64,000 nucleotides of DNA, from NCBI GenBank assembly GCA_009668225.1, contig WJYK01000003.1:248001-312000 (forward strand), given 5' to 3'. Below are positions 17,288 through 62,048 of this stretch, one piece after another. The position numbers were made by a program, and so were the translations under genes. The notes beneath the pieces are model-generated. The model worked only from the letters and a program-made list of their open reading frames with translations, searched no databases and was not told where the DNA came from. How positions within the stretch are numbered: the stretch's first letter is position 1; the number at the start of each line of letters is the position of its first letter. The stretch comes from Enterobacteriaceae bacterium RIT693. Lineage in GTDB: Bacteria > Pseudomonadota > Gammaproteobacteria > Enterobacterales > Enterobacteriaceae.

Positions 17288-17563
17288 ATGTTTTGTGTGA
17301 TCTACAGAAGTACCAAACGCGATCGGACATATCTTTATGTCGAAAAAAAAGACGATTTCTCTCGAGTGCCGGAAGAACTGATGAAAGGCTTCGGCAAACC
17401 CGTACTGTCGATGCTGTTGCCGCTGGACGGCAGTAAAAAACTGGCTAATGCCGATTTGGATAAAGTGAAACAGGCGCTGGAAACTGAGGGTTATTATTTA
17501 CAGATCCCACCTCCGGTAGAAAGCTTGCTCACCGTGCATCTGGAAAAGAGTCCTAAAAAATAA
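17288..17563 (+). CDS. ycgL: YcgL-domain protein
   Basis: The 91-residue protein matches E. coli YcgL from its MFCVIYRS segment onward. E. coli annotations often have a longer N-terminus, but here MFC is the first in-frame start. The family has a compact fold of unknown function and is conserved next to minC. It is divergent from minCDE. Confidence 0.9.
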
Positions 17564-17638
17564 TTTTCGGACTGAAGGCCAATCTTTTCCAGGTATTCAG
17601 CCTGAAAATGTGTAAAACACATTATTGCGGAAAAGACG

Positions 17639-46465: not shown

Positions 46466-46503
46466 GATGTTCTCTGCGCGAAATCGTGCAACATGCGAAA
46501 TAT

Positions 46504-47463
46504 TTATTTTTGGGCGCGCCACGCACCGGCAGCAGGATCGCGCAACTGCGGGTGCAGTGACTCGATCAACAGCAACGTAATAGCCGTATTCGGCGTCAGC
46601 CAACCGGACCAGAGTTTGCGCACCTCGTTTAGCCGTGCCTGAAGACGCGGCTCATCAAGCGCCATGTCGCGTGGCACCTCAACGGCGATTGTGCCGCTGG
46701 CTTTCCAGCCGTTTATTTCCGGGTGATAAGGTAAAATTAACCAGCTTTGTGGCGCCTGTTCATTGCTGACGACCATACGCTCGTTATTCACGCTGGTGAT
46801 AAGCAGCGTATCGGCGTCGGCAGCAGGGTTCAGCCCGCTGACCGGGAAACCGTGCACGAAAGACATCGTGATGCGTTTCTCGCCACCCGTGCCGCGCTGA
46901 ATCACTTCGCTACTGCCGTTCAGCCAGCCACCTTTTTCGCATTTGCCGTTTTGTTTACTGGGAATAAACAGCGCGGTGCTGTTGGCGTCGCCCTGCCAGA
47001 ACGTTCGCAGATGGCAGCCGTCCTGTAAGGTAAATTCCAGCCATGGGGTACGATCGAGCGGTGTGGAAAGGTCTTCCGGGCGTTCGTTACGGGTCGCAAC
47101 GGATGACAGCGGAGATTCAATAGCAACGTCCCAGTCGCTGGCCTTAGTGGCTGAGCCACGAGCAAGCGAAGCACCCGCGGTATCTTCAAGCTGCCAGTTT
47201 ACACGCTCAATTTCGCCGCACTGGTTTTCCAGGAGTGCACCGAGGCGGGGCATGAAGGTTTTGAGAATGAGCGGGTTTTTATCACCGTTCGCCACAATAC
47301 GCACCGGCAGCTCGGCAGCACACCAGTTTTGCGGGGCGTTACTTTTAATATTGTCTATCCACACATCCAGCTTCTGGGAAGGCGACTGAACGATGCGGTA
47401 GTTCCCTGCCCAGACGGTAGTTGATGCCAGCAGCAACGCCATACCCGAAAGCCAGAGTTTCAT
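46504..47463 (-). CDS. secreted periplasmic protein of unknown function
   Basis: I do not recognise this 319-residue protein. It has a clear signal peptide (MKLWLSGMALLLA..., cleavage near VWA-GN) and no further membrane helix. Cysteines are few (NWCAAEL, NQCGEIE, DGCHL, GKCEKG) and could form two disulfides. ATG 47463, behind AAGGA, is preferred over the open frame to 47550. It sits between a SH3 lipoprotein and the kinase-like protein, which suggests a shared envelope role. Confidence 0.7.
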   Translation of the reverse strand: MKLWLSGMALLLASTTVWAGNYRIVQSPSQKLDVWIDNIKSNAPQNWCAAELPVRIVANGDKNPLILKTFMPRLGALLENQCGEIERVNWQLEDTAGASLARGSATKASDWDVAIESPLSSVATRNERPEDLSTPLDRTPWLEFTLQDGCHLRTFWQGDANSTALFIPSKQNGKCEKGGWLNGSSEVIQRGTGGEKRITMSFVHGFPVSGLNPAADADTLLITSVNNERMVVSNEQAPQSWLILPYHPEINGWKASGTIAVEVPRDMALDEPRLQARLNEVRKLWSGWLTPNTAITLLLIESLHPQLRDPAAGAWRAQK

Positions 47464-47586
47464 AAAAATCCTTGTTAGCCTGTGTGTAAAGTGGAGGGCT
47501 AAAATCAACTCCTGCACAGGTTGCCGGGCCGACCGTTGCCATGCTCTCACGGTAATAACTTGTTATAAACTTCCCTATCGGAAAGT

Positions 47587-48081
47587 TTAGTTAATGATCC
47601 ACGTTCCGTTATCAGCGTTCTGGCAAGCTTTGCTTTTATTATCTACCGCAACGCAGGTGGATTTTTTAGCCGCACGACGAGGGCGAGGGCGGTCTTTTTT
47701 CAGCGCCTGATTATAAAGTTCACTCTTCACCAGCGCTCTTAACGGGGCATAGCCCAGTAGCTCTTGCTTATCCTGCTCAGCAATAGCAAGCCAGTGATTT
47801 TCTACCTCACCAAGCACCGTATAGCTCTGACCATTCTCCAACTGGGCTATCACTTTGCCGCCAAAATCAGGTTTACTCATAATTGAGCCAGGATAAAGTG
47901 CCCGGTAGCTGGCATCCACAGGCGTAAATTCTTGTGGTGCCTCAACAGCATAGCGGTGGGTCAGGGTGACGCCGTTTACCGTGCTGGTCACAATGGTGTC
48001 GTCAGTCATCTTCGGCGGTGGCGCTTTACAACCGACAACCGTGGTGACAACAAGAAGGACTAACAGGCTTCGCAATTTCAT
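47587..48081 (-). CDS. SH3-domain lipoprotein
   Basis: The 164-residue protein has a signal peptide with lipobox VVGC (Cys18) and a bacterial SH3-like segment at about 60-115 (GKVIAQLENGQSYTVLGEVE ending in LLGYAPLRALV). The tail is basic, then has two cysteines (STCVAV and KACQN). It is predicted to be anchored in the envelope and to bind a peptide or glycan partner. It is first in the operon; 123 bases without a gene separate it from the next. Confidence 0.72.
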   Translation of the reverse strand: MKLRSLLVLLVVTTVVGCKAPPPKMTDDTIVTSTVNGVTLTHRYAVEAPQEFTPVDASYRALYPGSIMSKPDFGGKVIAQLENGQSYTVLGEVENHWLAIAEQDKQELLGYAPLRALVKSELYNQALKKDRPRPRRAAKKSTCVAVDNKSKACQNADNGTWIIN

Positions 48082-48402
48082 TGAGACGTTCCCTGAGAAA
48101 AAGGTTAAAACCCAACCGCCGCGGAATGCGAGGAGCGCCGCACAGGAAAATGGTCCACGACGTGAGATACGCCCACGCAAAACAGTACGGTGGCCTGCCA
48201 GGCTCACCGCGACAAAGGAATTCGCGTGGTTTCAGTATAGTAGCGTGATTTTACATAGCCTGGTTAACAATTCAATGGCGATATAACACCTGAATAACCG
48301 ATAACACGCATGTATGTTTGATGGCGGCTTTGCGCCGGCGAAAATTTGCCTGATGCAAAAGTAACCTGCGCGGCGGTCGGCGGTGCTGAAAAATAGGAAG
48401 AT

Positions 48403-48501
48403 ATGTCTAATTTTTTGAATTTATTTGAAAAATTCAGCATTTTCGACGAAGTCTTATTTTCATTGCCCGGTCAATACTTAAGCCGCACAGGTTTTTTTTG
48501 A
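48403..48501 (+). CDS. possible 32-residue small protein
   Basis: AGGAAG stands five bases before ATG 48403, opening a frame of 32 codons (MSNFLNLFEKFSIFDEVLFS then LPGQYLSRTGFF) that ends at TGA 48501. The first 20 residues could form an amphipathic helix. It lies alone in the 487-base gap between the SH3 lipoprotein and the XRE regulator. No homologue is known to me; it could be chance in AT-rich DNA. Confidence 0.3.
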   Translation: MSNFLNLFEKFSIFDEVLFSLPGQYLSRTGFF

Positions 48502-48568
48502 GGAAATTCTTAAATCAAAGAAAAATAGTGCAGCTTGTCCATAAGCTGCCGGGCCGCATGCGATGACA

Positions 48569-49444
48569 TCAGTTCCCACTTTGTTGTGAAAACAGCCTCA
48601 GCGCGCGTTCTCCGGTTTCATCAATGGGTAAATAAACCAGCAGTCGGGAACCATCTCGCGGCGCGGAATACCAGTTGACCTGCTGCATGCCGAAGGTACC
48701 AATTTGCGGGTGGGTATACTGCTTAATATGGTTCTCTATATTGCGAATTTCGTAGCGCTGCTCCCAGAGCGTTTTAAAAGTCGGAGAGGCGGCGAAAAAC
48801 GATTCAAGTAAAGCTTCCCAGCGTGGGTCACCGCGATGCTCCGTGATCCCCGCGCGGAACCAGCCAACAAACTTGGGTAATACGTCTTCGTTACAGTCTA
48901 CCCGGCTGCGCCAGGTTTCATTCGTCAGGTACTGATAGATGCAGTTGCGGTGTTCTGGCGGCTCGTTATCAAGATCAACGCCCATCAGCTGACAAAAATG
49001 CGAGTTGTAGCCAAGGATGTCGAAGTTGGGCTTCTGAATACTGGCCGGATTCGGCATTAACGCATCAAGCATGCGGCGCGCGGCGGGACTTAGCCCCTCA
49101 CACTGAGCAGCAGCCGGGGCCTCGGAAGGCGGAAGGCCGGCCAGGATAAACAGATGACGAGTCTCCGCTGGGGAACACTGCAGCGCGCTGGCAATCGCCG
49201 TCATTGCCGTCGCTGAGGGATTCACCTCTCGCCCTTGTTCGAGCCAGGTATACCAGGTCACGCCAATGTCGGCGAGTAACGCCACCTCTTCACGGCGCAG
49301 GCCAGGCGTGCGGCGCCGTCCGCTGCGGGGCAGGCCAAGACGCTGAGGGTCAAGGCTTTCACGTCGGGTACGTAAAAAAAGCGCCAGCATTTTACGGCTG
49401 TCATCCAGCGGGCCGGTTCGCAGTTCAGACTGAGTGATGAGCAT
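48569..49444 (-). CDS. XRE-family regulator with MmyB-type ligand-binding domain
   Basis: The 291-residue protein has an N-terminal helix-turn-helix (RRTPGLRREEVALLADIGV, WLEQGREVNPS) and a C-terminal MmyB-like domain (LDALMPNPASIQKPNFDIL; YLPIDETGERALRLF) typical of regulators that sense small organic ligands. ATG 49444 is preferred to the adjacent GTG 49447. It is divergent from a drug-efflux gene, which it probably controls. Confidence 0.85.
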   Translation of the reverse strand: MLITQSELRTGPLDDSRKMLALFLRTRRESLDPQRLGLPRSGRRRTPGLRREEVALLADIGVTWYTWLEQGREVNPSATAMTAIASALQCSPAETRHLFILAGLPPSEAPAAAQCEGLSPAARRMLDALMPNPASIQKPNFDILGYNSHFCQLMGVDLDNEPPEHRNCIYQYLTNETWRSRVDCNEDVLPKFVGWFRAGITEHRGDPRWEALLESFFAASPTFKTLWEQRYEIRNIENHIKQYTHPQIGTFGMQQVNWYSAPRDGSRLLVYLPIDETGERALRLFSQQSGN

Positions 49445-49509
49445 CACAACTACTCCAGTATAGTAGTGCCAATACCCGTATAAGCAGGAACTGGTACCCG
49501 GTTAAATTA

Positions 49510-49535
49510 TCAGGAATGCTACGTCGGTATCCTGA
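49510..49535. promoter_or_regulatory. inverted repeat between the XRE regulator and the MFS gene
   Basis: TCAGGA-N14-TCCTGA is a perfect inverted repeat 20 bases before the MFS start and 65 bases from the regulator start. It is the best operator candidate for the XRE protein. Confidence 0.45.
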
Positions 49536-49555
49536 ACTATGCAATGGAGTCCCTG

Positions 49556-50977
49556 ATGAATAATTCGCCTGTTTCACCCGGTCGTGCTGGCCTGGTGCTG
49601 TTGTTAACGGGCCAGATGCTGCCGTTAATCGACACATCTATCACCAACGTCGCGCTGGACTCAATAACGCAGTCACTTGGCACGACGCCCACCCAGCTGG
49701 AGCTTATCGTTGCGCTGTACGGCGTTGCCTTTGCCGTCAGCCTTGCAGTGGGCAGCAAGCTGGGTGATAACCACGGCCGCCGCCGGATCCTGATGTGGGG
49801 CGTGGTGCTTTTCGGCATCGCCTCATTCCTTTGTGGTATTGCCGGCTCAGTTAGCGAACTGTTGGCAGCGCGGACCCTGCAGGGTGTTGGCGCGGCGCTC
49901 ATCGTGCCGCAAATCCTCGCCACGCTGCACGTCACGCTCAAGGGCACCGCTCACGCCCGCGCCATCAGCCTGTACGGCGGCATTGGCGGGATTGCTTTTA
50001 TTATCGGTCAAATGGGCGGCGGCTGGCTGGTATCGGCGGATATTGCCGGCCTGGGCTGGCGTAATGCGTTCTTTATCAACGTGCCTATTTGCCTGTTAGT
50101 GCTGGTGCTGAGCCGCTTTTATATTCCAGAAACGCGCAGTGAAAGCCATTCGCGCATCGACTGGCAGGGCACCGTCACGCTTGCCCTGATGCTTTGCTGC
50201 CTGCTGTTCCCGATGGCGCTTGGCCCCGACCTGCACTGGCCGTGGCCGATGCAGCTGATGCTGGTGGCCACACTGCCGCTGGGTTACCTGATGCGCGTCG
50301 GAGCGCTGGGCCAGCAACAGCGCGGCCTACAGCCGCTGCTGCCGCCGAGGCTGCTGAAGCTGGGCAGCATACGTTTTGGCCTGCTGATCGCGCTGCTGTT
50401 CTTTACCTGCTGGTCGGGCTTTATGTTCTGCATGGCGCTGACGCTGCAGTCGGGCATGGGCATGGCGCCGTGGCAGTCCGGGAACAGCTTTATTGCGATG
50501 GGCATTTCTTATTTTGTTTCAGCGTGGTTTGCGCCGAGGCTTATCGTGCGCCATTCGCTCAGCACAATTCTGCTGAGCGGGATTGCGATTCAGGTTGTGG
50601 GCCTCCTGGGGCTGATATTTACGCTCTACCATTTTGGCACCCACGCCAGCCCGCTGGCTATCGCGCCTGCCACGCTGGTGACCGGCTACGGGCAGGCGCT
50701 GATTGTGAACAGCTTCTACCGTATCGGGATGCGCGATATCGATCTGAACGATGCCGGAGCGGCAAGCGCCATACTGAGCACCTTGCAGCAATCGGCCCTG
50801 GGGCTTGGTCCTGCCGTGCTGGGGGCATTGTTCCTGCATTTGCAGCGCCAAAGTGGCGATTACTCACTGGCGATGATGGGCTTCCTTGCGGCGGAGATCG
50901 TGATGATGCTGGCGCTTGCGGCGGCGGCAGTCACCCGGCGTCAGCTTTTGTCCGGTGAGAAGGTGCCCTTGAGATAA
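49556..50977 (+). CDS. MFS multidrug efflux protein, DHA2 (14-helix) family
   Basis: The 473-residue inner-membrane protein has about 14 helices and family motifs LPLIDTSITNVAL (motif D1), GDNHGRRRILMWG (motif A) and GGIGGIAFIIGQMGGGWLV (motif C of drug/H+ antiporters). ATG 49556 with GGAG six bases upstream is chosen over 49544. Substrates are unknown. The 3' end overlaps the remnant AraC gene on the other strand by 37 bases. Confidence 0.88.
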   Translation: MNNSPVSPGRAGLVLLLTGQMLPLIDTSITNVALDSITQSLGTTPTQLELIVALYGVAFAVSLAVGSKLGDNHGRRRILMWGVVLFGIASFLCGIAGSVSELLAARTLQGVGAALIVPQILATLHVTLKGTAHARAISLYGGIGGIAFIIGQMGGGWLVSADIAGLGWRNAFFINVPICLLVLVLSRFYIPETRSESHSRIDWQGTVTLALMLCCLLFPMALGPDLHWPWPMQLMLVATLPLGYLMRVGALGQQQRGLQPLLPPRLLKLGSIRFGLLIALLFFTCWSGFMFCMALTLQSGMGMAPWQSGNSFIAMGISYFVSAWFAPRLIVRHSLSTILLSGIAIQVVGLLGLIFTLYHFGTHASPLAIAPATLVTGYGQALIVNSFYRIGMRDIDLNDAGAASAILSTLQQSALGLGPAVLGALFLHLQRQSGDYSLAMMGFLAAEIVMMLALAAAAVTRRQLLSGEKVPLR

Positions 50978-51075
50978 CGCCCCGGTGGCGTACCGATAAT
51001 GCGGGTAAAGGCAGTGGTAAAACTGCTGGCGCTTTGATAGCCCATATCATAGGCCACCCGTGTTATTGGCCCACC
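50941..51075 (-). pseudogene. remnant of an AraC-family regulator (C-terminal end only)
   Basis: On the minus strand the frame reads GGPITRVAYDMGYQS, then ASSFTTAFTRIIG, TPPGRYLKGTFSPDKS and a stop at 50941. This is the last helix-turn-helix of an AraC regulator. Upstream (51076 onward) the similarity stops abruptly and a TAA lies in frame a few codons further, so about 85 percent of the gene is missing. The break faces the RADAR locus, which suggests deletion when that locus arrived. Confidence 0.8.
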
Positions 51076-51324
51076 TTTAATTGTTTAAATAATCCGCAAA
51101 TAATTCCTCAGGCATAAATAGTCCCCCGGTTAAGGCTGGGATCAAAATAACGTGGCGTGGTAATATCAGCTCCCAGATGATATTTGAATTAATTGCCATC
51201 CGTTATTACATCGGTGTTAATTATTCGTATCCGCTTTAATGTGAAATTCATCACTATTTATACTGTTGCTCAGAAGGGTCCTGCCTGAGCTAAACATCCA
51301 ATTTTACGTATCTCTGAGGGAATT
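51076..51324 (+). promoter_or_regulatory. AT-rich leader and promoter region of rdrAB
   Basis: This stretch has no gene. TATACT at 51259-51264 is the best -10 element, about 60 bases before rdrA; no matching -35 is clear. The composition changes from the GC-rich MFS gene to AT-rich here, marking the left edge of acquired DNA. Confidence 0.4.
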
Positions 51325-53889
51325 ATGGCTGGCGAAATTATTCTGAATCTTGATTTGCCCGAATATCAAGATGATTTTCTTTCTTCGAAAGACGGCGGGG
51401 AGCCAAATGGACTTTGGCAGCAAGAGGCTAACAAAACGCTGGTCAGCCATCTGGATAAAATGGGTAGGGCGGCAAAAGATTATAAAAAGAATGTCAATCA
51501 ATGCAAAAATCAAGCTACCAAATTAAGTAGTTATCACCATGCGATTTTTATCAGCGGTGCACGGGGCACAGGTAAGACGGTTTTCTTACGGAATATCCAG
51601 GCAGTCTGGGAGACTAACAAAAAACGGCATGTTGAAAATGTAAGCGATTTGCCAGATCTTTATTTTATCGATGCAATAGATCCGACCTTGCTTAATATAC
51701 ACGATCGTTTTTCAGAAGTGATTATTGCTTCCGTTTATGCAGCCGTCGAAAAGAAACTGAAACTCCCTAATATTGAACAATCAAAAAAAGACACTTTCTA
51801 CGGCGCGTTGAAAACTCTGTCAGGGGCTTTAGGGGTTGCATCAGAGTTTGATGAGTACAGAGGTATCGATCGGTTGCAAAAATACCGCTCCGGCATTCAC
51901 CTTGAAAAATATTTCCACCAGTTTCTTATCGCCAGCGTCGATCTCCTCGGCTGTGATGCCTTAGTGTTGCCAATTGATGACGTCGATATGAAGATCGACA
52001 ATGCCTTTGGCGTGCTGGACGATATTCGCTGCATCCTTTCTTGTCCACTGATCCTGCCCCTTGTCAGTGGAGATGACGACCTTTATCGGCATATTACAAC
52101 CATGCAGTTTGAAAGTTCACTGGCGAAAAGCAACCATGCCGGTAATTTTAACGAAGGCAAGATTATGGCAGAGCGTCTGTCAAAGGCATATTTGACCAAG
52201 GTTTTCCCTAACCATACTCGTTTACCTCTGGTGCCCATCAGCCAGCTTCTTTCCAAACTCAAAATTCAAAGCCAGGCGCAAAAAGGTCCCTACACATTTT
52301 CTGAATATGAGAATAAAATCAAGCGTGTGTTCTATCCGTTATGTAACGGGCAGGAGCGCAGCACCGACTGGCCAAAGCCTGACAGCGCCCGCGAAGTGAC
52401 GCAGCTGGTCCGTTTGTTAACACCTTCACAGCTTGATGAAGACAAAACCGCAGACGAGTTGTGGCGGAGATTTTTAATCTGGGCAGAAGAAAAGCAGGAC
52501 GGCATTGCACTGACTAACGCCGAGTCATTTCTTAAGGTGAGCACGATGCAACCGTCTGAGGCGCTGGATTTGAACTCGCTGATTGCTTTTAACCCGCTGC
52601 TGCAGAAAAATCGTTATAACTGGGCTAAAAAGGATTTTTACGATCAGCAAGCCAATAACATCGCAGATTTAAAAGCACATAAAACTAATAAAGGAATATT
52701 GGATACAGTATTTTCTCAGCGGAGTGACAGTATCTTAGACAGTCGAGATTATACGTTACGCAGTTTACCACCGCTTGAATTAATAATGGAGCCACTATTT
52801 CTCAGTAAGGAAATTGCTGAAAATAAAGAAGGGCGGAATGAGAGGTTATTGGCTATATACACTTATAATAACTATTATAGTCGTCAGCACAATAGGCGAT
52901 ATCATATTTTCTTTAGCCGCGCCTTTGAGGTTTTGGCATGGTCACTACTGGCTGTTACTGGTAATCTTTCATCGACATTTGATGATAAAAACGTGTTCAA
53001 AGAACAAATTAAAAATATGTTCATGAGAGCGCCGTTTTATTCAATATTTGCTTTAAATCCGACAAGAATCATCGATGAAGATGGAGAAGACGCATTGGAT
53101 TTTGATGGTTCAATTTCATATGCCGCCGAGATTGATAAAATTGGTGATGAAATATATGACTGGTGGTGTGATTATGAAATTTCATCACTTAGGGGGAAGA
53201 ACTTAATTCCGTTATTGTCCGTTGTGTTTAACAAAACATTTTCTCAGCTTAGTGTTTTGAGAAAAAATATTGTTACAGATAGAAAAAAGTTTAGCGATGA
53301 ACATCTTTCTGATTTGTCAAATAGATTTGAATACATTTTTATTAATGCCTTGACGTCATTTTTGCGTGATGGAATTGTCATCAATACCAATGTGGCGACT
53401 GGAGCAAGATCTAACTCGGTTAGGAGTTTTGATGAATTCAATAAGTATGACAGAACAGTTTCAAGAAACCTTGGTCATATGCTGGGGATTATCGAGAGTG
53501 ATAATAGGAAAGTATTGATAGAAAATGAAAGTGATAATGTTAAGTTAATCGTTGCAATGTCTCAAAATCCTGTTTTTTTCTGGGGTGAAAATGAGCAGTA
53601 TCTCATTGGTAATAGCCGTGCAGAAAACGATTTGAATATGGAGGCGTTGAGGGTTGAAATAAATAGTCTAAACTTTAGTGGTGTTAGAGATTATTATTAT
53701 TCCAGGTCGGGTCATAAAACCATCAGGGTTAGGGAAGTAGCAATATGGGCTGCTTCAAATATGGATGCGGCTCGTTTGTTATATGAAAAAATAAAGAATG
53801 ATGAATATATAAGTCTTGATATATATTCTGGTGGCCAGGTTGAATGGATGTATAAAGGCCTGGCCCGTGGCTTAGGCAAAGAAGAATAA
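51325..53889 (+). CDS. rdrA: RADAR antiphage system ATPase RdrA
   Basis: RdrA is the ATPase partner in RADAR, where it assembles as a ring and works with the deaminase RdrB to stop phage growth. The 854-residue protein has Walker A GARGTGKT at 78-85 and Walker B LVLPIDDVD at 213-221, both in the N-terminal third, as in STAND-like AAA+ proteins. The remaining two thirds have no recognised motif. AGGGAATT precedes ATG 51325. The second half of the gene is visibly richer in A+T than the first half and the backbone genes, a sign of transfer. Identification rests on the ATPase motif, the length and the neighbouring rdrB. Confidence 0.85.
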   Translation: MAGEIILNLDLPEYQDDFLSSKDGGEPNGLWQQEANKTLVSHLDKMGRAAKDYKKNVNQCKNQATKLSSYHHAIFISGARGTGKTVFLRNIQAVWETNKKRHVENVSDLPDLYFIDAIDPTLLNIHDRFSEVIIASVYAAVEKKLKLPNIEQSKKDTFYGALKTLSGALGVASEFDEYRGIDRLQKYRSGIHLEKYFHQFLIASVDLLGCDALVLPIDDVDMKIDNAFGVLDDIRCILSCPLILPLVSGDDDLYRHITTMQFESSLAKSNHAGNFNEGKIMAERLSKAYLTKVFPNHTRLPLVPISQLLSKLKIQSQAQKGPYTFSEYENKIKRVFYPLCNGQERSTDWPKPDSAREVTQLVRLLTPSQLDEDKTADELWRRFLIWAEEKQDGIALTNAESFLKVSTMQPSEALDLNSLIAFNPLLQKNRYNWAKKDFYDQQANNIADLKAHKTNKGILDTVFSQRSDSILDSRDYTLRSLPPLELIMEPLFLSKEIAENKEGRNERLLAIYTYNNYYSRQHNRRYHIFFSRAFEVLAWSLLAVTGNLSSTFDDKNVFKEQIKNMFMRAPFYSIFALNPTRIIDEDGEDALDFDGSISYAAEIDKIGDEIYDWWCDYEISSLRGKNLIPLLSVVFNKTFSQLSVLRKNIVTDRKKFSDEHLSDLSNRFEYIFINALTSFLRDGIVINTNVATGARSNSVRSFDEFNKYDRTVSRNLGHMLGIIESDNRKVLIENESDNVKLIVAMSQNPVFFWGENEQYLIGNSRAENDLNMEALRVEINSLNFSGVRDYYYSRSGHKTIRVREVAIWAASNMDAARLLYEKIKNDEYISLDIYSGGQVEWMYKGLARGLGKEE

Positions 53890-53898
53890 GGGCAGCCC

Positions 53899-56478
53899 AT
53901 GTACAACCAGGACCCTTATTGGCTAATACCCAGCGCTTATCTGGCTTCCGACAGGATTTTTAATCGCTGCCTGCAGCAGCATGTCGGCGGTGTACTTTTC
54001 CAGGAGGATGGGAGGGAAGGCGAACGCGATGCCTTGCTGCTGGCCGCTCAGGACTATCAGTTTTATTTTGGTGGTCGCCTGAGAAAAGAAGACATTAAAA
54101 ATAATGCAGAGCTCTGGCGTCTTCCCTCCGTAGAGTTGGGCATTCATAAATTACTTGAGAAATACGTTGACCACTTTCTTATCTGGCAGGGAGATTGCTT
54201 TGAGGTTCGGCGTGAAAAGCTTGAGTCCTGGGTCATGCTTTGTTCTATCGTCGATCCCGCCTGGATCATTGCCAGCGCTTATGTTCGGCTGCTGAAAGAG
54301 AATATTTTATCTGAGCATGAGTTTATTGCTGCCGTTATCGGGCGGCAATGTGCTTTCGCTTTTCCCGGTGAACGCAATGATGCTGAATATGCCGATAACC
54401 ATGTGCATTTTAACGGCCACGGCTATTCCTCTTTGTCCATGTTAAGTTTTATTGATGGGGATTTTAAGCTTCAAGAAGGGCTGAGCTGGCCGCACCGCGA
54501 AGAATATACGCTTTTTGAAAGTGAGCACCTCGATAAGAATAATCTCCCTCACTGGCTTTCAACCTATGTTGCCTGTTTATTGCCTGTTATTTATAACGAT
54601 GCCGCGCCGTCAGGAACAGGTTCAAACAAAGATATTGATTTTACAAAGCTCAATAATGCGACTGCTGTGTCAACGTCCGTCGATGAGCGGTGGGGACTTC
54701 TGGACAGGACCAGCCTCCACGAACCCGTTACACAGCAGCAACGTATTTTACAGATTGCAATCCAGTCCGACGAGCAGGGGCATAAACGCTGGATGCTTTT
54801 TTGCTGTGGATTGATGCTGGGAGAGCACGCTGCCGGATATGAACACTGTCTCGGAAACCTCATCCGCGTGAGTAACATATTACGCAACTATATGGTGGTC
54901 TCTGCGGTGGGTCTCGGCCAGTTTGTGGAATATTTCAGCTTTGGCGCTCGTCGGGCGGATAAGGATTTATTCCGGCGTGAGGCGGTGCGTTATGACCTTG
55001 GGAAGCATACTTCCCGAGAATATCGTGTGTCCCCCAACTTTATATTGGGAGAAAAAGACAGGCCGAATATTTACCATCACGATCTTAGTGACTTCTACGC
55101 CAATCATCACCAACAGGCGTTACCTGAACAGGCCCATCTGGTCATCCATTTTACCCGTGAGTTGCCGGACCAGGAGAAGCCTCATGACCGAAGGGTCCAG
55201 AAGCGTCGCGATGAACTGTTGCAGCAGGTCAGAGGGCTTGAGGATTTCAACGCCTCCGTCACGCTGAAAAATGGTGAGCATGTCAGCAGCATAGATGCTG
55301 AGCCACAGCCTGTGGATTTACGCCGCCTGGTGCGCGGATATGATGTGGCAGGAAATGAAAATGATTTGCCGATTGAAATATTTGCTCCGGTGCTCAGGGT
55401 TCTTCGGGCAGCAAAACATCCCGGCGGCATGCCGATGTCGACGCGATTGCAGCGGCCTTTTATTACCGTGCACTGCGGCGAAGACTACAGCCATTTGTTA
55501 AGCGGTTTGCGCGCGATGGACGAAGCCGTAGAGTTTTGCCAACTCAGGGAAGGGGACCGGCTCGGGCACGGGCTGGCTCTGGGCGTGGATGTCGGCCAGT
55601 GGGCAAATCGGCAGCGCCGGGCCTGGCTCACCGCGGGTCAGCATCTGGATAATTTAGTCTGGGCTTATCACCAGGCTGTTCAGCTATCTCAACACACCAC
55701 TGAGCATATTCCCGTGATGCATGAGCTAAGGGATAAAATACATCGCTGGTCTCAACGGCTTTATAACGAGATCTGCACGCCCGATCTGCTTTATCGTGCG
55801 TGGCTGCTCAGGCGCAACTGGCCTGATTTTGAAGAGATGCAGTCCGACATCAGCAATGTTACCGAATGGGCGCCCGATCATGAGTGGCTGCGCAAAGATG
55901 ACAAGGATGAAGTGCTGCAAAAAGCCACGCAGTTTTGGGAGCGTTATTTGAACAGTGGCTTAGAAGATAACAACCCTTTCAATCGTATTATTTCAGTGAA
56001 TTGTCAGCCTGAAGCGGGGGCGCTTTTCGCGCCTGACATTCACGACAATGAAGATGTATTATCCCAGGGAGAACAACGTCTGTATGAAGCCATTCAGGAT
56101 TTCTTGATGGAGAAATATAGTCGAAAAGGACTGATCGTCGAAGCCTGCCCCACATCCAATATTTATATTGGACGTTTTGAAAAATACCATGAGCACCCGC
56201 TGTTTCGCTGGAACCCGCCGCAGCAAGAGTGGCTCAAACCCGGAGAGAAGTTTAACCGCTATGGTTTGCGTTCAGGCCCGCTGGCCGTTTGCATCAATAC
56301 GGATGATTGCGCGCTGATGCCGACGACGATCGCGAATGAACATAGGGTAATACGTGAAACTGCCATTCAGTGTTTTGGCGTGGGGGCATGGGCGGCAGAT
56401 TTATGGATCGACGCAATCCGACGTAAGGGAGTAAGTACGTTCAGATCAAATCATCTGCTGCAGGAGCAGACAAATTAG
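53899..56478 (+). CDS. rdrB: RADAR antiphage system adenosine deaminase RdrB
   Basis: RdrB is a large, divergent adenosine deaminase; in studied systems it forms a dodecameric shell and converts adenosine nucleotides (reported as RNA adenosines or free ATP/dATP) to inosine forms during infection. The 859-residue protein keeps the zinc-enzyme motifs in order: HVHFNGHG (168-175, metal-binding HxH), TVHCGED (523-529, catalytic HxGE), RLGHG (554-558), EACPTSN (748-754) and NTDD (800-803, metal-binding aspartate). The 350-residue insertion between the first two motifs is typical of RdrB. It begins nine bases after rdrA. No third gene (rdrC) is present. Confidence 0.9.
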   Translation: MYNQDPYWLIPSAYLASDRIFNRCLQQHVGGVLFQEDGREGERDALLLAAQDYQFYFGGRLRKEDIKNNAELWRLPSVELGIHKLLEKYVDHFLIWQGDCFEVRREKLESWVMLCSIVDPAWIIASAYVRLLKENILSEHEFIAAVIGRQCAFAFPGERNDAEYADNHVHFNGHGYSSLSMLSFIDGDFKLQEGLSWPHREEYTLFESEHLDKNNLPHWLSTYVACLLPVIYNDAAPSGTGSNKDIDFTKLNNATAVSTSVDERWGLLDRTSLHEPVTQQQRILQIAIQSDEQGHKRWMLFCCGLMLGEHAAGYEHCLGNLIRVSNILRNYMVVSAVGLGQFVEYFSFGARRADKDLFRREAVRYDLGKHTSREYRVSPNFILGEKDRPNIYHHDLSDFYANHHQQALPEQAHLVIHFTRELPDQEKPHDRRVQKRRDELLQQVRGLEDFNASVTLKNGEHVSSIDAEPQPVDLRRLVRGYDVAGNENDLPIEIFAPVLRVLRAAKHPGGMPMSTRLQRPFITVHCGEDYSHLLSGLRAMDEAVEFCQLREGDRLGHGLALGVDVGQWANRQRRAWLTAGQHLDNLVWAYHQAVQLSQHTTEHIPVMHELRDKIHRWSQRLYNEICTPDLLYRAWLLRRNWPDFEEMQSDISNVTEWAPDHEWLRKDDKDEVLQKATQFWERYLNSGLEDNNPFNRIISVNCQPEAGALFAPDIHDNEDVLSQGEQRLYEAIQDFLMEKYSRKGLIVEACPTSNIYIGRFEKYHEHPLFRWNPPQQEWLKPGEKFNRYGLRSGPLAVCINTDDCALMPTTIANEHRVIRETAIQCFGVGAWAADLWIDAIRRKGVSTFRSNHLLQEQTN

Positions 56479-56525
56479 TCTTTTTGTGCCGCTCGTTTTG
56501 ACTGATATTCAGGCAGAAATAAACC

Positions 56526-56560
56526 GCAGCAGGATCGCCTTCAAGGTGATTTTGCTGCGA
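56526..56560 (+). terminator. long stem-loop after rdrB, possible terminator or processing site
   Basis: CGCAGCA-GG-ATCGCCTT-C-AAGGTGAT-TT-TGCTGCG folds into an almost continuous stem 47 bases after rdrB. No T-run follows. The rest of the 315-base gap to mqo is AT-rich and should hold the mqo promoter. Confidence 0.5.
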
Positions 56561-56793
56561 ATAATGTGCACCGGTGGCCGTAACTCTCTAAAATAATTAA
56601 CCATTGCCGTTGAAATTATCCAGAATGATTAATTCATAGATTCTGTTGTTATTTGGTTTTTTTAATTAAAAAAACACTGGCATTAATTGTATGGATTATT
56701 AAAGATGTGAATGAGATTTTAAAATATCGTGAAAGTAGGTTAACATAGAGACACTTCATTCACCTGCGATGCAATATAATTATTATGCCTGCA

Positions 56794-58443
56794 ATGAAAA
56801 AGACAATTATTTCTCTGACAACACTGGCGTTATTCGTAAGCTCTGCTAGCTACGCTAACGCGGATTCCACGCAAAAAACCGACTTCCTGCTGATTGGCGG
56901 CGGTATCATGAGCGCCTCTCTCGGGACGTGGCTCCAGGAGCTGCAGCCGGACTGGAAACAGGTCATGGTTGAGAAGCTCGACGGCGTGGCGCTTGAGTCC
57001 TCTAACGGCTGGAATAACGCCGGTACCGGTCACTCGGCAAATATGGAACTGAACTATACGCCGGAGCGCCCGGACGGTTCTATTGATGTCAGTAAAGCGC
57101 TGGAAATTAATGAACAGTTTATGATTTCTCGTCAGTTCTGGTCTGCGCAAATTCAGCGCGGTATTTTGAACGACCCTCATTCATTTATTAATTCCACGCC
57201 ACACATGAGTTTTGTCTGGGGCGATAAAAACGTTGAGTATCTGACCAAGCGTTATGATGCGCTGCAGAAAACGACGCTGTTCCAGGGCATGAAATTCTCC
57301 ACTGACCATGAGCAAATTAAGCAGTGGGCTCCGCTGGTCATGGCTGGACGAGATCCGAATCAAAAAGTGGCGGCAACCTGGACGCCGGTTGGTACCGACG
57401 TCAACTACGGTGAAATTACCCGTCAGCTGATCGGTAGCCTGAAAAAAAGCCAGAACTTCTCCCTGCAAACTTCTTCTGAAGTCACCGACTTCAAACGCAA
57501 CGGCGATAATTCCTGGCACGTTACCATTAAAGACGTGAATAGCGGCAAAGAGCAGGCTATCGATGCCAAATATGTCTTCATTGGTGCCGGCGGCGGTGCG
57601 CTGAAACTGCTGCAGGAAACCGGTATCCCGGAAGCGAAAAACTACGCCGGTTTCCCGGTGGGTGGTTCGTTCCTGATGACCGAAAACCCGGCGGTAACCA
57701 GCCAGCATCTTGAAAAAGTGTACGGCCAGGCTTCCGTAGGGGCGCCACCGATGTCCGTGCCGCACATTGATGCTCGCTTTATCGACGGTAAACGCGTAGT
57801 GCTGTTCGGGCCGTTCGCGACCTTCTCTACTAAGTTCCTGAAAAACGGTTCCTTCTTCGATCTGCTGAGCACCACCACGACCAGCAACTTTATGCCGATG
57901 ACCGACGTAGGGCTGGATAACTTCGACCTGGTTAAATACCTGATTGGTCAGGTTATGCTGAGTGATGAAGACCGCTTCGAAGCGCTGAAAGAGTACTATC
58001 CGCAGGCGCGTAAAGAGGACTGGAAGCTGATTCAGGCCGGCCAGCGTGTACAGATCATCAAGAAAGATGAGAACAAAGGCGGCGTGTTGAAACTGGGTAC
58101 CGAAGTTGTTGTTGACCAGCAGAAAACCATCTCTGCGCTGCTGGGCGCATCGCCTGGGGCTTCTACCGCTGCGCCAATCACGCTGAACGTGCTTAAGCAG
58201 ATGTTCCCGCAGCAGTTCAACTCTCCGGAATGGCAGAACAAGATCCGTGCCGTGGTGCCAAGCTACGGTCAGGAGATGAACGGCAATGCGGCGCTGACTC
58301 AGAAAGTTTGGGATGACACCGCGGCCACGCTGCAGCTGACCAAACCGCCGGTCATTCAAATGAACGATCAGAGCGCTACGCCGGTCGCTAAACCTGCTGA
58401 AAGCAAAGCTGAAGCCTCTCAACAGCACGATATGGCGCTGTAA
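56794..58443 (+). CDS. mqo: malate:quinone oxidoreductase
   Basis: Mqo oxidises malate to oxaloacetate and passes electrons to the quinone pool. The 549-residue flavoprotein has an FAD motif [13 protein letters not shown] near residue 35 and [21 protein letters not shown] after it, and matches E. coli Mqo (548 residues). An N-terminal hydrophobic segment ([14 protein letters not shown]...) looks like a signal or anchor sequence. Start choice is uncertain: ATG 56785 is three codons upstream and neither has a good ribosome site; MKK fits the family better. The C-terminus ends in a Lys/Ala/Glu-rich tail. Confidence 0.92.
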
Positions 58444-58467
58444 GCTTCACGCGTTAAATAAGTAAGA

Positions 58468-58497
58468 AAGCCTTTGCCAGCGCAGGGGCTTTTTTTT
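58468..58497 (+). terminator. Rho-independent terminator of mqo
   Basis: GCCTTTGC-CAGC-GCAGGGGC (with G-U pairs) followed by eight T. Confidence 0.85.
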
Positions 58498-58526
58498 GCG
58501 TATTAAATGCCGCCTTCTTATCTAAT

Positions 58527-58541
58527 GGGGGATATTCCCCC
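58527..58541. other. short perfect hairpin GGGGGA-TAT-TCCCCC
   Basis: It lies between the mqo terminator and the hydrolase gene. It may act as an operator or processing stem; nothing more can be said. Confidence 0.3.
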
Positions 58542-58623
58542 GCTAACCGATATCTCTTATTGAGCGATCTGCCCTACAGTCCGCGTGTTGACAGGCGATA
58601 ACGCCACTTTCAAGGAAAACACG

Positions 58624-59934
58624 ATGACTAAACTGAATACCGGAATTTGCCTGCTTACCCTTTGCCTTGGTGCCGCCCTGCAGGTGAACGCCGCTCCTGT
58701 AACTGCGGATTGCCAGACGCTCCAGCTTGCAACTTGTCCCGCTCCCACGGACACGAAACTGCCTGACGTAAAAGACATGCTGACCTGGAACCAGCAGCAG
58801 CGCGTCGTGGGCTTTCGTAATGATTACCGTTCCTATGAGGGCGATGTTTTCAAAGCCGGGCAGTCTGTGCCTGTCCCACGCGCAGCAAAAGATCTCTCGG
58901 GCGTAAGCTATCAGTACGACGGACACGATTTTAAGCTGGGGGAATACCTCAAGCGAAACAGCGTGACCGGCATGATGGTCATTAAGGACGGCAAAATCGT
59001 CTGGGATTACTACGGGGAAGGCAACACGCCGACTACGCTCTGGACATCCCGCTCTGTTGGGAAATCTGTGGTCTCCACGCTGGTGGGCGTGGCGGTAAAA
59101 GAGGGGAAAATCACCTCGCTGGACGACGAGATTGTGAAATATAACCCGGACGTAAAAGGCACCGCCTGGGAGCACGTCACGGTACGCCAGCTGCTGCAGC
59201 ACACCTCGGGCGTTAGCTGGGGGGAGGATTACACCAATCCGAAGTCCGACTTTGCCAGGCTGACGCAGTGCGAAGCGAACAGCGATACCTATGATTGCGT
59301 GAACAAGCTGGTGAAAGATCCGCAGCGTAAAGCCTACGCGAAGCCGGGTGAGGCCTGGTCTTACTCCTCCGGCGGCGCCTGGCTGTTGGGCGATACGCTG
59401 GAGAAAGCGACCGGCAAATCTCTGGCACAAAACCTTCAGGAGGCCATCTGGCAGCCATACGGCATGACGCACGACGGCGTGTGGCACAGCTATCAGAAAG
59501 GGAAGCATGATGTCGGCGCGCACGGCTTCAACGCCACGCTCGAAGACTGGGGTAAATTTGGCCTGTTTATCATGAACAACGGCGTGCTGCCGGACGGCAA
59601 GAAAATGCTGCCTGATGGCTGGGTGTCACAGGCTCGTGGCTGGAATAAAGCGCAAAAATCCGTCACCGCCGCGCATCCGGACGGCAGCTACGGTTTTGAA
59701 TGGTGGAACAACAGCGTTCCGGCGAATGCGAGCGATGTAGGGCCGAAACACGGTCTGGAAAGCAAAGACTCCATGTGGGCGCTGGGGATTTTTGGGCAGC
59801 TGATCATGGTGAACCAGAAAGAGAAGCTGGTGATTGTCCAGTGGTCGACCTGGCCGAAGGCGGAGCCGTCTTTCAGCGCCCAGCCGCTGGAGGCGTCCCT
59901 GATGTTTAACGCCATCGCGAATTCGCTTAAGTAA
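58624..59934 (+). CDS. exported serine hydrolase of the beta-lactamase/EstB family
   Basis: The 436-residue protein has a signal peptide (cleavage near VNA-AP) and class C beta-lactamase-like active-site motifs: SVGK at 144-147 (nucleophile Ser144) and YSS at 247-249. The third KTG-type motif is not clear; HGLES may stand in for it. Relatives include esterases, D-aminopeptidases and 6-aminohexanoate-dimer hydrolases, so a resistance role should not be assumed. ATG 58624 behind AAGGAAA is chosen over the frame start at 58585. Confidence 0.8.
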   Translation: MTKLNTGICLLTLCLGAALQVNAAPVTADCQTLQLATCPAPTDTKLPDVKDMLTWNQQQRVVGFRNDYRSYEGDVFKAGQSVPVPRAAKDLSGVSYQYDGHDFKLGEYLKRNSVTGMMVIKDGKIVWDYYGEGNTPTTLWTSRSVGKSVVSTLVGVAVKEGKITSLDDEIVKYNPDVKGTAWEHVTVRQLLQHTSGVSWGEDYTNPKSDFARLTQCEANSDTYDCVNKLVKDPQRKAYAKPGEAWSYSSGGAWLLGDTLEKATGKSLAQNLQEAIWQPYGMTHDGVWHSYQKGKHDVGAHGFNATLEDWGKFGLFIMNNGVLPDGKKMLPDGWVSQARGWNKAQKSVTAAHPDGSYGFEWWNNSVPANASDVGPKHGLESKDSMWALGIFGQLIMVNQKEKLVIVQWSTWPKAEPSFSAQPLEASLMFNAIANSLK

Positions 59935-59940
59935 CAGACA

Positions 59941-59970
59941 AGCCAGCCGAAAGGCTGGCTTTTTACTTTT
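59941..59970 (+). terminator. Rho-independent terminator of the serine hydrolase gene
   Basis: AGCCAGCC-GAAA-GGCTGGCT then TTTTACTTTTTTT. The convergent GAPDH gene ends just beyond it. Confidence 0.92.
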
Positions 59971-59978
59971 TTTAGGTC

Positions 59979-60989
59979 TTACAGGCCGCGTTTATCCATC
60001 AGTAAGGCAAGGTCAACAAGGCGATTCGAGAAGCCCCATTCGTTGTCGTACCAGGCCAGAATTTTGACCAGGTTACCGCCAATCACCAGCGTAGACAGCC
60101 CGTCAATAATCGAAGAGCGTGGGTCGCCCTGATAATCGCTGGACACCAACGGTTCATCGCTATAGCCCAGAATGTTTTTCAGCGGGCCTGATTCTGCGGC
60201 TTTACGGAACGCCGTGTTCACTTCCTCTGCGGTCACATCGCGTTTAAGCGTCACGGTTAAATCGACGATAGATACCACCGGCACCGGCACGCGCAGCGAG
60301 TAGCCGGTCAGGCGGCCGTCCAGTTCAGGGATAACTTTACCGAGGGCTTTTGCCGCGCCGCTGGAGTAGGGAACTATCGACAACGCTGACGCACGCGCCC
60401 CGCGCAGGTCTTTTTCCGGCTGGTCGTGCAGCGCCTGGCTGTTGGTGTAGGCATGGGTGGTGTTCATCAGGCCGTGTTCAATACCGAATGCCTGATGCAG
60501 GACCTGAGCGGCAGGGGCAAGTCCGTTGGTAGTACAGCTGCCGTTGCTAACCACAAAGTGCTTCTGCGGATCGTAGCTTTCGTGGTTTACGCCCAGCACA
60601 ATGGTCAGATCGTCGTCTTTACCAGGTGCAGAAATGATCACGCGTTTTGCGCCGCCGTGGGTGATGTGAACTTCAGCTTTTTCGCGGCTGGTGAAAAAAC
60701 CGGTGGCCTCAATAACAATATCTACGCCGACGTCACGCCACGGAATTTGCGCCGGGTCTCTTTCGCTGAAGACGCGAACCGGCTTGCCGTCAACGTGGAG
60801 CAGCCCTTCGGAGGCCTCCACCGGCGCGGGCAGTTTTCCCATCAGCGAGTCGTGCTTGAGCAGGTGTGCGAGCGTTTTGCTGTCCGTCAAATCGTTGATT
60901 GCTACGATCTCAATATTGGGGTTACCCAGGGCAGCACGCAGCACGTTACGCCCGATCCTGCCAAAACCATTAATCCCGACCTTAACCAT
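59979..60989 (-). CDS. second glyceraldehyde-3-phosphate dehydrogenase
   Basis: The 336-residue protein has the NAD motif GINGFGRIG, an Asn-Asp pair at 32-33 that favours NAD over NADP, the active cysteine Cys152 in SCTTN and His179. The residue four after the catalytic cysteine is glycine (SCTTNG) where most GAPDHs have cysteine. The sequence NDLTDSKTLAHLLKHDS is nearer to Bacillus-type GAPDH than to E. coli GapA, and it is not Epd. E. coli gapA is not in this position, so this is probably an accessory enzyme, perhaps horizontally acquired. Confidence 0.85.
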   Translation of the reverse strand: MVKVGINGFGRIGRNVLRAALGNPNIEIVAINDLTDSKTLAHLLKHDSLMGKLPAPVEASEGLLHVDGKPVRVFSERDPAQIPWRDVGVDIVIEATGFFTSREKAEVHITHGGAKRVIISAPGKDDDLTIVLGVNHESYDPQKHFVVSNGSCTTNGLAPAAQVLHQAFGIEHGLMNTTHAYTNSQALHDQPEKDLRGARASALSIVPYSSGAAKALGKVIPELDGRLTGYSLRVPVPVVSIVDLTVTLKRDVTAEEVNTAFRKAAESGPLKNILGYSDEPLVSSDYQGDPRSSIIDGLSTLVIGGNLVKILAWYDNEWGFSNRLVDLALLMDKRGL

Positions 60990-61067
60990 GATTCACTCCT
61001 TCTCTTGAATGTCTGGGGTCAGAGTATGCTCAGGGGGGAATGGCGTAAATGACAAAAAAGGATCAAT

Positions 61068-62048
61068 TCACGCCAACTTACGGCAGTGGAAGCGTTCGCG
61101 GTATTCTCCCGGGGTAAGGTGGAGCTGGCGCTCAAAAACGCGGCGGAGGTTAATGGCGCTGCCAAAGCCTGCTGCCGCTGCGACCCGCTCAAGCGTGTCG
61201 GTTGACTGTTCAAGGTGGTGGCGCGCGGCGGCAAGCCTGGCCTCTTCCACGTAGCGAGCGGGGGTAACGCCGGTTTCGCGGGTAAAGACGCGGGTAAAAT
61301 TCCGTGGGCTCATGGCAACTCGCTCCGCCAGTTTTTCCACCGACAAATCGTCCGCAAGGTTATCCAGCAGCCAGTCCTGAAGCTGGCCTATAGGCCCGGT
61401 ATTGGCGGCCTGGCGCAGATGATAGCGGCTAAACTGCAGCTGGCCGCCGGGGCGGTGCAGGTACATCACTAAATCCTGAGCGACGTCACGGGCGAGGGTG
61501 AAACCGTAATCGGCCTCCACCAGCGCCAGCGTAAGATCGAAGCCGGAACTCACGCCGCCCGAAGTCCATACCGGCCCGTCCTGAATGTACAGCGGGCCGC
61601 CTTCGACTTTAATTTGCGGCCATTTGGCCTGCATTTCCTCAAGCATCCGCCAGTGGGTCGTTGCCCTGCGGCCATTCAGCAGCCCGGCCTGGGCTAATAA
61701 CATGGCACCGCCACAGATGGAGGCAATGCGTTCGGTATGCGGCGACGCGCGGCGTATCCACTCCACCACGGCGCTGCCTTCGGGCTCGCTCAGGCCTTTA
61801 CCGGTGATCATGATGGTGTCGCGAGGCTCGTCGGGATCGAGGTCTGCCAGCCGGTGGTCGGCCAGCAGGTTGAGCCCGGACATGCCGTGCACAACGTGAT
61901 GAGGCTGCGTGGTTGCGATGCTGATGCGGTAGCGAGGTTCGGCGAGCGCCTCCGTATGCAGGCGGTTGGCCTGCATCAGAATATCGGCGATACCGGCGGC
62001 TTCGAACAGCATGCCGCCGTCAGGGACAATAACCAGAATAGTTTTCAT
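61068..62048 (-). CDS. GlxA-type AraC-family regulator with DJ-1/PfpI domain
   Basis: The 326-residue protein has an N-terminal amidotransferase-like DJ-1/PfpI domain (ASICGGAMLLAQAGLL, RRATTHW) and a C-terminal AraC helix-turn-helix (LAERVAMSPRNFTRVFTRETG; VAAAAGFGSAINLRRVF). Such regulators often control catabolic or amine/aldehyde genes. It may act on the adjacent GAPDH gene or on hut genes; both are inference. It sits 78 bases upstream of the GAPDH gene on the same strand. Confidence 0.88.
   Translation of the reverse strand: MKTILVIVPDGGMLFEAAGIADILMQANRLHTEALAEPRYRISIATTQPHHVVHGMSGLNLLADHRLADLDPDEPRDTIMITGKGLSEPEGSAVVEWIRRASPHTERIASICGGAMLLAQAGLLNGRRATTHWRMLEEMQAKWPQIKVEGGPLYIQDGPVWTSGGVSSGFDLTLALVEADYGFTLARDVAQDLVMYLHRPGGQLQFSRYHLRQAANTGPIGQLQDWLLDNLADDLSVEKLAERVAMSPRNFTRVFTRETGVTPARYVEEARLAAARHHLEQSTDTLERVAAAAGFGSAINLRRVFERQLHLTPGEYRERFHCRKLA

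What the first reader, a model, noticed from the sequence alone, without database searches (positions are those of the whole stretch)
51325..56478. A complete two-gene RADAR antiphage locus
rdrA carries Walker A/B motifs in the N-terminal third and rdrB keeps all adenosine-deaminase motifs (HVHFNGHG, HCGED, RLGHG, NTDD) spread across 859 residues with the long insertion typical of RdrB. The two genes are nine bases apart and lie alone among housekeeping genes. RADAR is a described defence system; this copy lacks rdrC, so it is the minimal form. Whether it acts on RNA or on free nucleotides cannot be read from sequence.
Basis: partly seen in the sequence, partly recalled or inferred. Interest (0 to 1): 0.9.

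Follow-up and report, generated by a model that had tools for sequence, protein, structure and literature searches.

The report
Stand-alone RADAR anti-phage defence locus
This is an ordinary, intact two-gene RADAR anti-phage defence locus of a known type, sitting alone among metabolic genes where related species carry a regulator and a reductase gene instead.

Summary
Window 51325-53889 (854 aa) and 53899-56478 (859 aa) are rdrA and rdrB of a RADAR system: both pass NCBIfam's curated cut-offs and match PADLOC models end to end. All five zinc/catalytic residues of E. coli RdrB and all seven Walker/sensor residues of E. coli RdrA are present. No accessory gene was found beside them, so this is the stand-alone rdrAB form already in print (PMC7699616, passages). 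The pair replaces an AraC-regulator and FMN-reductase gene pair present in 6 of 8 genomes of the genus; G393 has RADAR at the same site. Both genes are under purifying selection; the C-terminal end of RdrA, the proposed sensor, changes fastest (one genome pair). By homology it most likely turns ATP/dATP into ITP/dITP on infection; structure prediction was too poor to help. A new member of a known kind, of low interest in itself. A better side lead: in a relative (G035) a RADAR of another clade is followed by a HAM1-SIR2 cassette resembling the dITP-reading NADase of Kongming.

The parts
51325..53889 (+). rdrA: AAA+ ATPase of RADAR, 854 aa. Walker A G83-K84-T85, Walker B D218-D219, sensor 1 D250, sensor 2 R356; beyond about residue 363 no similarity to the E. 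coli RdrA clade was detected by profile comparison, and the last 150 or so residues evolve fastest
   Evidence: NF041743 735.8 bits (cut-off 600); PDLC02217 1394 bits, residues 1-853; residues mapped; fast C-terminus; similarity confined to residues 3-363
53899..56478 (+). rdrB: adenosine deaminase of RADAR, 859 aa. Zinc ligands H168, H170, H525, H557; catalytic E528; D802-D803
   Evidence: NF041744 939.2 bits (cut-off 800); PDLC02218 1577 bits, residues 1-857; PF00962 27.3 bits just over its cut-off 27; residues mapped
53890..53898 (+). 9-base gap between the two genes; a Shine-Dalgarno-like AAGGG overlaps the rdrA stop and the gap
   Evidence: sequence, (Shine-Dalgarno reading is by eye)
51081..56648 (.). 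inserted segment, 45% G+C against 53.9% for the window; ends are approximate, where similarity to RADAR-less relatives stops
   Evidence: left edge 51069-51080 and right edge 56642-56650 in 6 of 6 RADAR-less genus genomes; G+C
50973..51081 (-). remnant (approximate limits) of the C-terminal end of an AraC-type regulator that is whole in RADAR-less relatives
   Evidence: reads GGPITRVAYDMGYQSASSFTTAFTRIIGTPPGRY on the minus strand; whole gene in L036-L041; AraC family by Pfam in 3 of 3 tested

Best explanation
A functional, chromosomal, stand-alone RADAR (rdrAB) locus. RdrA is an AAA+ ATPase whose C-terminal lobe probably senses infection and which docks on and stimulates RdrB. RdrB, a zinc adenosine deaminase built into a shell, then turns ATP and dATP into ITP and dITP, poisoning the nucleotide pool so that phage replication and the infected cell stop. 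Shown here: family membership, intact frames, catalytic residues, gene order, no accessory gene found, site history, purifying selection. Inferred from E. coli and C. rodentium RADAR in print: the ATP-to-ITP chemistry, the assembly, and defence. Proposed in print and only weakly supported here: sensing by the RdrA C-terminus.
For: Curated-cut-off matches to RdrA and RdrB and near full-length PADLOC matches. Solved E. coli RdrA and RdrB are the only PDB sequences matched at E < 0.001: 8hr7/8fnt (E 4e-13, 5e-13) and 8fnw/8fnv (E 1e-19). E. coli RdrB H152, H154, H498, E501, H530 map to H168, H170, H525, E528, H557, identical in 18 of 18 aligned proteins; E. coli RdrA G81, K82, T83, D221, D222, D253, R377 map to G83, K84, T85, D218, D219, D250, R356, six identical in 18 of 18, the T in 16 of 18 (Ser in 2). 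In 23 of 23 distinct loci compared an RdrA match precedes an RdrB match on the same strand. Genus mate G393 keeps both genes open at the same site, with dN/dS 0.107 (RdrA) and 0.084 (RdrB) against the window. Mechanism in print: PMC9994260 sections 8-11, 13, 14.
Against: Profile-profile similarity to the E. coli clade covers only RdrA 3-363 and RdrB 413-833; the rest, including the RdrA C-terminus and the RdrB N-terminal half, could not be linked. Interface residues tested by mutation in E. coli are only partly kept: K150 is K155, but E151 is D, R162 is G, and E595-E597 align to a gap, E and I. AlphaFold models were poor (mean pLDDT 41.5 and 47.6), so the fold was not confirmed independently. 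dN/dS, though low, is higher than in five flanking genes (0.010-0.042). No expression, ITP or phage data exist for this copy.
Confidence: 0.88

Rival explanations
1. It is RADAR by sequence, but defends by editing adenosine to inosine in RNA, as first proposed, and not by making ITP/dITP.
For: The name and the first report, as retold in PMC7699616 and PMC9994260, rest on A-to-G signatures in RNA of infected cells.
Against: PMC9994260 reports no strong evidence of editing (a minor A-to-G signature was recorded), no deamination of a hairpin RNA by E. coli RdrB in vitro, and massive ITP/dITP. The active-site residues here are those of the mononucleotide deaminases of that study.
Confidence: 0.04
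2. The inosine nucleotides made by this locus act mainly as a signal read by another protein (as dITP is read by KomB-KomC in Kongming), and not as a poison.
For: In G035 a HAM1-like gene with D to H in its active-site motif and an overlapping SIR2 gene follow RADAR directly. dITP is a known messenger for KomB-KomC (PMC12948488, passages).
Against: The window's own genome has a single HAM1-family gene, of housekeeping type and on another contig. tblastn with the HAM1-like and SIR2 proteins of G035 finds nothing in the 9 loci of the window's RADAR clade (window searched over 46001-62000 only). Co-occurrence in the family is weak: 2 of 15 RADAR genomes against 9 of 377 others, P = 0.06.
Confidence: 0.05
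3. A decaying or silent copy, no longer under selection for defence.
For: No promoter could be assigned with confidence: one plus-strand promoter-like site lies before rdrA (51066-51093, 9 of 12), among 21 sites found against 11.3 expected. G+C differs from the host.
Against: Both frames are whole; dN/dS is 0.107 and 0.084 against G393, and all mapped catalytic residues are kept.
Confidence: 0.03

Closest known systems
Stand-alone RADAR (rdrAB), as tested from Citrobacter rodentium DBS100
   Same: rdrA and rdrB; large ATPase and large adenosine deaminase (PMC9994260). That the C. rodentium locus has no accessory gene is recalled
E. coli RADAR (P0304799.3; PDB 8fnt, 8fnv, 8fnw, 8hr7)
   Same: Same gene order, same Walker, sensor, zinc and catalytic residues
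   Different: 18% (RdrB) and 20% (RdrA) identity to L054, its near-identical relative; RdrA C-terminus and RdrB N-terminal half not aligned by profile comparison; E. coli triple-glutamate and crown residues only partly kept
[not shown]
   Same: Homologous RdrA/RdrB (29% identity in RdrB)
   Different: Carries RdrD (NF041745 284 bits for L042; L043 by tblastn; annotated in the E. coli strain), with four hydrophobic stretches, right after rdrB; the window has none
Salmonella plasmid pIndS104-CTX and Aliivibrio plasmid pVSAL840 RADAR
   Same: Nearest to the window's group: RdrB 55.9% and 42.6% identical; no RdrD match
   Different: Plasmid-borne; the window copy is on a 457-kb contig among conserved genes
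Cad1 (CARF-fused adenosine deaminase of type III CRISPR)
   Same: Adenosine deaminase making ITP from ATP for defence (PMC11645235, title and start of abstract in a search listing); weak hit of RdrB to PDLC01908, CARF_ADA (E 0.001)
   Different: Gated by cyclic oligoadenylate through a CARF domain (same listing); no RdrA partner (recalled)

Membership tests
RADAR | RdrA: ATPase scoring above the curated RdrA cut-off | tested here: met
   NF041743 735.8 bits, cut-off 600
RADAR | RdrB: adenosine deaminase scoring above the curated RdrB cut-off | tested here: met
   NF041744 939.2 bits, cut-off 800
RADAR | rdrA and rdrB encoded in tandem | tested here: met
   same strand, 9 bases apart
RADAR | Walker A, Walker B, sensor 1 and sensor 2 residues of RdrA | tested here: met
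   7 of 7 residues
RADAR | Histidine tetrad and catalytic glutamate of RdrB | tested here: met
   5 of 5 residues
RADAR | Insertions in RdrB that build the dodecamer; RdrA C-terminal lobe and crown | tested here: inconclusive
   long extra segments present (859 aa) but not aligned to the solved clade by profile; interface residues partly kept; AlphaFold models too poor
RADAR | ATP/dATP to ITP/dITP conversion and phage defence | not testable with these tools
   needs bench work
RADAR with accessory membrane protein (Csx27- or SLATT-associated subtypes) | small membrane protein beside rdrAB | tested here: not met
   no ORF of 80 aa or more wholly within 50978-51324 or 56479-56784; RdrD query finds nothing in window 46001-62000; no Csx27 model was run
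Kongming-like signalling (KomB-KomC reading dITP) | HAM1-like and SIR2 genes in the locus or genome | tested here: not met
   only one HAM1-family gene in the genome, housekeeping type; SIR2 searched only in window 46001-62000

The most novel reading that the evidence does not exclude
RADAR is a generator of inosine nucleotides that can be wired to different outputs. In the window it is the receptor-less form that poisons the nucleotide pool, with a fast-changing RdrA C-terminus as phage sensor. In a relative (G035) a RADAR of the RdrD-bearing clade is followed by a HAM1-like protein whose active-site aspartate is replaced by histidine and an overlapping SIR2 gene, so that RdrB-made (d)ITP would be a second messenger that triggers NAD+ depletion. 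The evidence is one linked locus plus the conserved HAM1-SIR2 cassette, and concerns the relative, not the window copy.
Probability: 0.2. Interest if true: 0.7.

Novelty: new member of a known kind. Interest (0 to 1): 0.25.

Why it matters
In itself it adds one clean stand-alone RADAR to a rare system (270 of about 38,000 genomes in PMC9994260, section 8). It has a sister copy at the same site in G393, so the pair can be used to ask which part of RdrA follows the phage. The comparison also turned up a RADAR locus joined to a HAM1-SIR2 cassette, which would make the question of how RADAR's inosine nucleotides stop phages directly testable: poison or messenger.

Tried and rejected
Rejected: a chance ORF pair (profile scores); a housekeeping adenosine deaminase (adenosine-deaminase equivalog models score 13.5-30.9 bits against cut-offs of 216.55-530); a prophage or plasmid origin visible at the site (no tRNA in the window; the genes flanking the junctions are not mobile genes); a close copy in E. 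coli (no megablast match of the locus in 20,395 records) or an RdrB in the phage collection (no tblastn match in 50,697 records).

AlphaFold with 4-sequence alignments gave poor models: some stretches of either protein reach block means of 70-86, most residues lie below 50, and no fold search was obtained. A 480-aa ORF after rdrB in L047 looked like an accessory gene but is antisense to ychF. Association of HAM1-SIR2 with RADAR across the family is not significant (P = 0.06). Two rows (G283, G348; short deaminase-only hits) were dropped before counting 15 RADAR genomes of 392; L056 was dropped from the 23 loci as the same place as L046. I take the 392 genomes to be the same set (same request, same handles).

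Full report
What is there. The window is G000:C23:248001-312000 of a 5.04-Mb genome in 51 contigs, in which the RdrB model finds one match.

Identity. RdrA matches NCBIfam NF041743 with 735.8 bits (cut-off 600) and PADLOC PDLC02217 with 1394 bits over residues 1-853. RdrB matches NF041744 with 939.2 bits (cut-off 800) and PDLC02218 with 1577 bits over residues 1-857. Pfam sees only fragments: an AAA region below every cut-off and A_deaminase at 27.3 bits, cut-off 27. In the PDB the only sequences matched at E < 0.001 are E. coli-type RdrA and RdrB chains.

Catalytic residues. Locus L054 carries near-identical relatives of the solved E. coli proteins (1765 and 2004 bits over their full length), so it gives their numbering. 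On an 18-protein alignment the E. coli RdrB zinc ligands and glutamate (H152, H154, H498, H530, E501; named in PMC9994260, passages) fall on H168, H170, H525, H557, E528, identical in 18 of 18. The seven Walker and sensor residues of E. coli RdrA (PMC9994260 section 9) are all kept in the window. Interface residues tested by mutation in E. coli are not well kept: K150 is K, but E151 is D, R162 is G, and E595-E597 align to a gap, E and I. The alignments are unsure in those regions.

How far the homology reaches. Profile-profile comparison of the window clade (8 proteins) with the E. coli clade (6) aligns RdrA residues 3-363 (probability 99.9) and RdrB 413-833 (99.8) and reports nothing else. 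The paper reports the same pattern between RADAR systems (section 8). Heptamer, dodecamer and docking are therefore carried over by family, not shown here. AlphaFold on 4-sequence alignments gave mean pLDDT 41.5 (RdrB) and 47.6 (RdrA), too poor to use.

Subtype. A tree of 18 RdrB proteins gives three groups: the window's, one that includes the RdrD loci, and the E. coli one (window with L035 1.00, but two inner nodes near the window have support 0.28 and 0.37). In 23 distinct loci (14, 5, plasmids L063 and L064, L035 and the window; L056 is the same place as L046) an RdrA match precedes an RdrB match on the same strand in all 23. A match to RdrD lies in 2 and to HAM1-SIR2 in 1; neither lies in the 9 loci assigned to the window's clade, L107 being assigned by best match and not by the tree. 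Some stretches are short (L108 7.6 kb, L049 9.6 kb), and a divergent accessory protein would be missed. PMC7699616 (passages) names the stand-alone rdrAB subtype; PMC11676413 (passages) says some variants add a SLATT or Csx27 membrane protein. The primary paper (Science 2020) is not held.

Distribution. RdrB matches were found in 17 of 392 genomes of the family (9 over the cut-off; two of the 17 are short deaminase-only hits), 2 of 8 of the genus, 3 of 369 of the class (1 over the cut-off, the window's own; the other two weak) and 28 of 295 of the order (4 over the cut-off, 3 more with clear partial matches, 21 weak). The plasmid collection has 7 of 72,556 records, 2 covering at least 80% of the query: Salmonella pIndS104-CTX (55.9%) and Aliivibrio pVSAL840 (42.6%).

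The site. In 6 of 8 genomes of the genus the same flanks enclose about 1.45 kb with an AraC-type regulator and a divergent reductase gene (regulator by Pfam in 3 of 3 tested, FMN reductase in 2 of 2). In the window and in G393 this stretch is replaced by RADAR, leaving a C-terminal remnant of the regulator at the same place. Similarity to RADAR-less relatives stops at 51069-51080 and resumes at 56642-56650. I saw no mobile gene at the junctions. The shared remnant argues for one insertion before the two lineages split, or later exchange together with the flanks; the data do not separate these. The segment is 45% G+C against 53.9% for the window, and rdrA from base 1501 on 35.6%.

Selection. 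Window against G393: RdrA dN 0.106, dS 0.986, ratio 0.107; RdrB 0.078, 0.928, 0.084. Five flanking genes have ratios 0.010-0.042, lower than RADAR. dS in RADAR exceeds that of four of the five flanking genes, which could mean exchange or weaker codon bias. Along RdrA, in windows of 100 codons, the ratio is 0.04-0.11 in the 12 windows starting at residues 1 to 552 and 0.19, 0.33 and 0.30 in those starting at 702, 752 and 802; two windows (602, 652) have saturated dS and no ratio. The first 100 codons of RdrB are also fast (0.18). This is one pair of genomes and all ratios are below 1: it fits, but does not prove, the idea in PMC9994260 (section 14) that the RdrA C-terminus is the sensor.

Surroundings. 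The ten flanking genes scanned include a trehalase, a protein-kinase-domain protein, an MmyB-like regulator and an MFS transporter upstream, and mqo, a beta-lactamase-fold protein, GAPDH and an AraC/DJ-1 regulator downstream; two upstream genes have no Pfam match. Only the kinase-domain protein matches PADLOC models, kinase-type ones, as any such domain might.

Mechanism. From PMC9994260 (sections 8-11, 13 and 14 read): E. coli RdrB turns ATP and dATP into ITP and dITP, RdrA enhances this, both proteins are needed, and C. rodentium RADAR makes ITP and dITP in infected cells. With the same catalytic residues and gene order the window copy most likely works likewise. That it is RADAR I hold near 0.99; that it is a working one acting through (d)ITP as poison, 0.88.

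Side lead. In G035 (L049) the gene starting 148 bases after rdrB is HAM1-family (PF01725, E 9e-35; below the cut-offs of the NCBIfam XTP/dITP diphosphatase models) and overlaps a gene matching SIR2 defence models, ThsA best. The HAM1-like protein has VEHTGL where the window genome's housekeeping protein has ADDSGL (that the second D is catalytic is recalled). The same cassette is in 11 of 392 family genomes (E < 1e-60), with the SIR2 gene adjoining and the same motif in 11 of 11; 95 Pantoea plasmid records match the HAM1-like protein and 96 the SIR2 protein, and in the one inspected (L062) the two genes overlap and no RADAR is annotated within 4 kb. In Kongming, dITP binds KomB and activates KomC to deplete NAD+ (PMC12948488 and PMC12774641, passages); that KomB is HAM1-like and KomC SIR2-like is recalled. 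Three paper searches (CC-licensed PMC papers only) listed one review that names both RADAR and Kongming (PMC12948488), and the passages I saw do not link them; a link elsewhere in print is not excluded. Only 2 of 15 RADAR genomes have the cassette against 9 of 377 others (P = 0.06), and only one is linked; in G020 the two lie 1.2 Mb apart. Of 14 genomes of G035's genus only G035 has the HAM1-like gene.

Noticed in passing
L049 (G035:C53) 242-7254: RADAR of the RdrD-bearing clade, without an RdrD match, is followed 148 bases on by a HAM1-like gene (D to H in the active-site motif) and an overlapping SIR2 gene, resembling the dITP-sensing KomB-KomC pair; RdrB would supply the dITP.
   Followed up: partly
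L069-L079; L062 (Pantoea plasmid CP077748.1 204357-205708): A conserved two-gene HAM1-SIR2 cassette with motif VEHTGL, in 11 of 392 family genomes (9 of them without any RdrB match); 95 Pantoea plasmid records match its HAM1-like protein.
   Followed up: partly
L051 (G048:C1) 9048-18431: A Dsr1-type SIR2 gene lies directly before rdrA on the same strand, 133 bases apart: a second RADAR beside a NADase-type gene.
   Followed up: no
L042 (G242) and L047 (G355): Two RADAR loci of different clades (one with RdrD) sit beside ychF and a sulfate permease gene in different genera: a shared integration spot, found in 2 of the 14 loci searched.
   Followed up: partly
L050 (G275) 4196-14193; L045 (G208), L046 (G097): RADAR lies between cheZ and flhB of a flagellar cluster in L050, and beside secretin and CesT-type chaperone genes in L045 (L046 has the same layout, not scanned): like the window, lone insertions into conserved gene clusters.
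   Followed up: partly
L045 (G208) 10871-13442: RdrA reads as 785 aa with 213 bases before rdrB, yet tblastn similarity runs on in the same frame to 10896: probably an early stop that removes the RdrA C-terminal end.
   Followed up: no
window 52825-53889: The last two-fifths of rdrA are 35.6% G+C against 43.8% for its first 1500 bases and 50.4% for rdrB, and include the fastest-changing part of the protein.
   Followed up: partly
window 45083-46603: A protein-kinase-domain protein 4.7 kb before rdrA matches many PADLOC kinase models (best E 1e-30); probably general kinase similarity.
   Followed up: no
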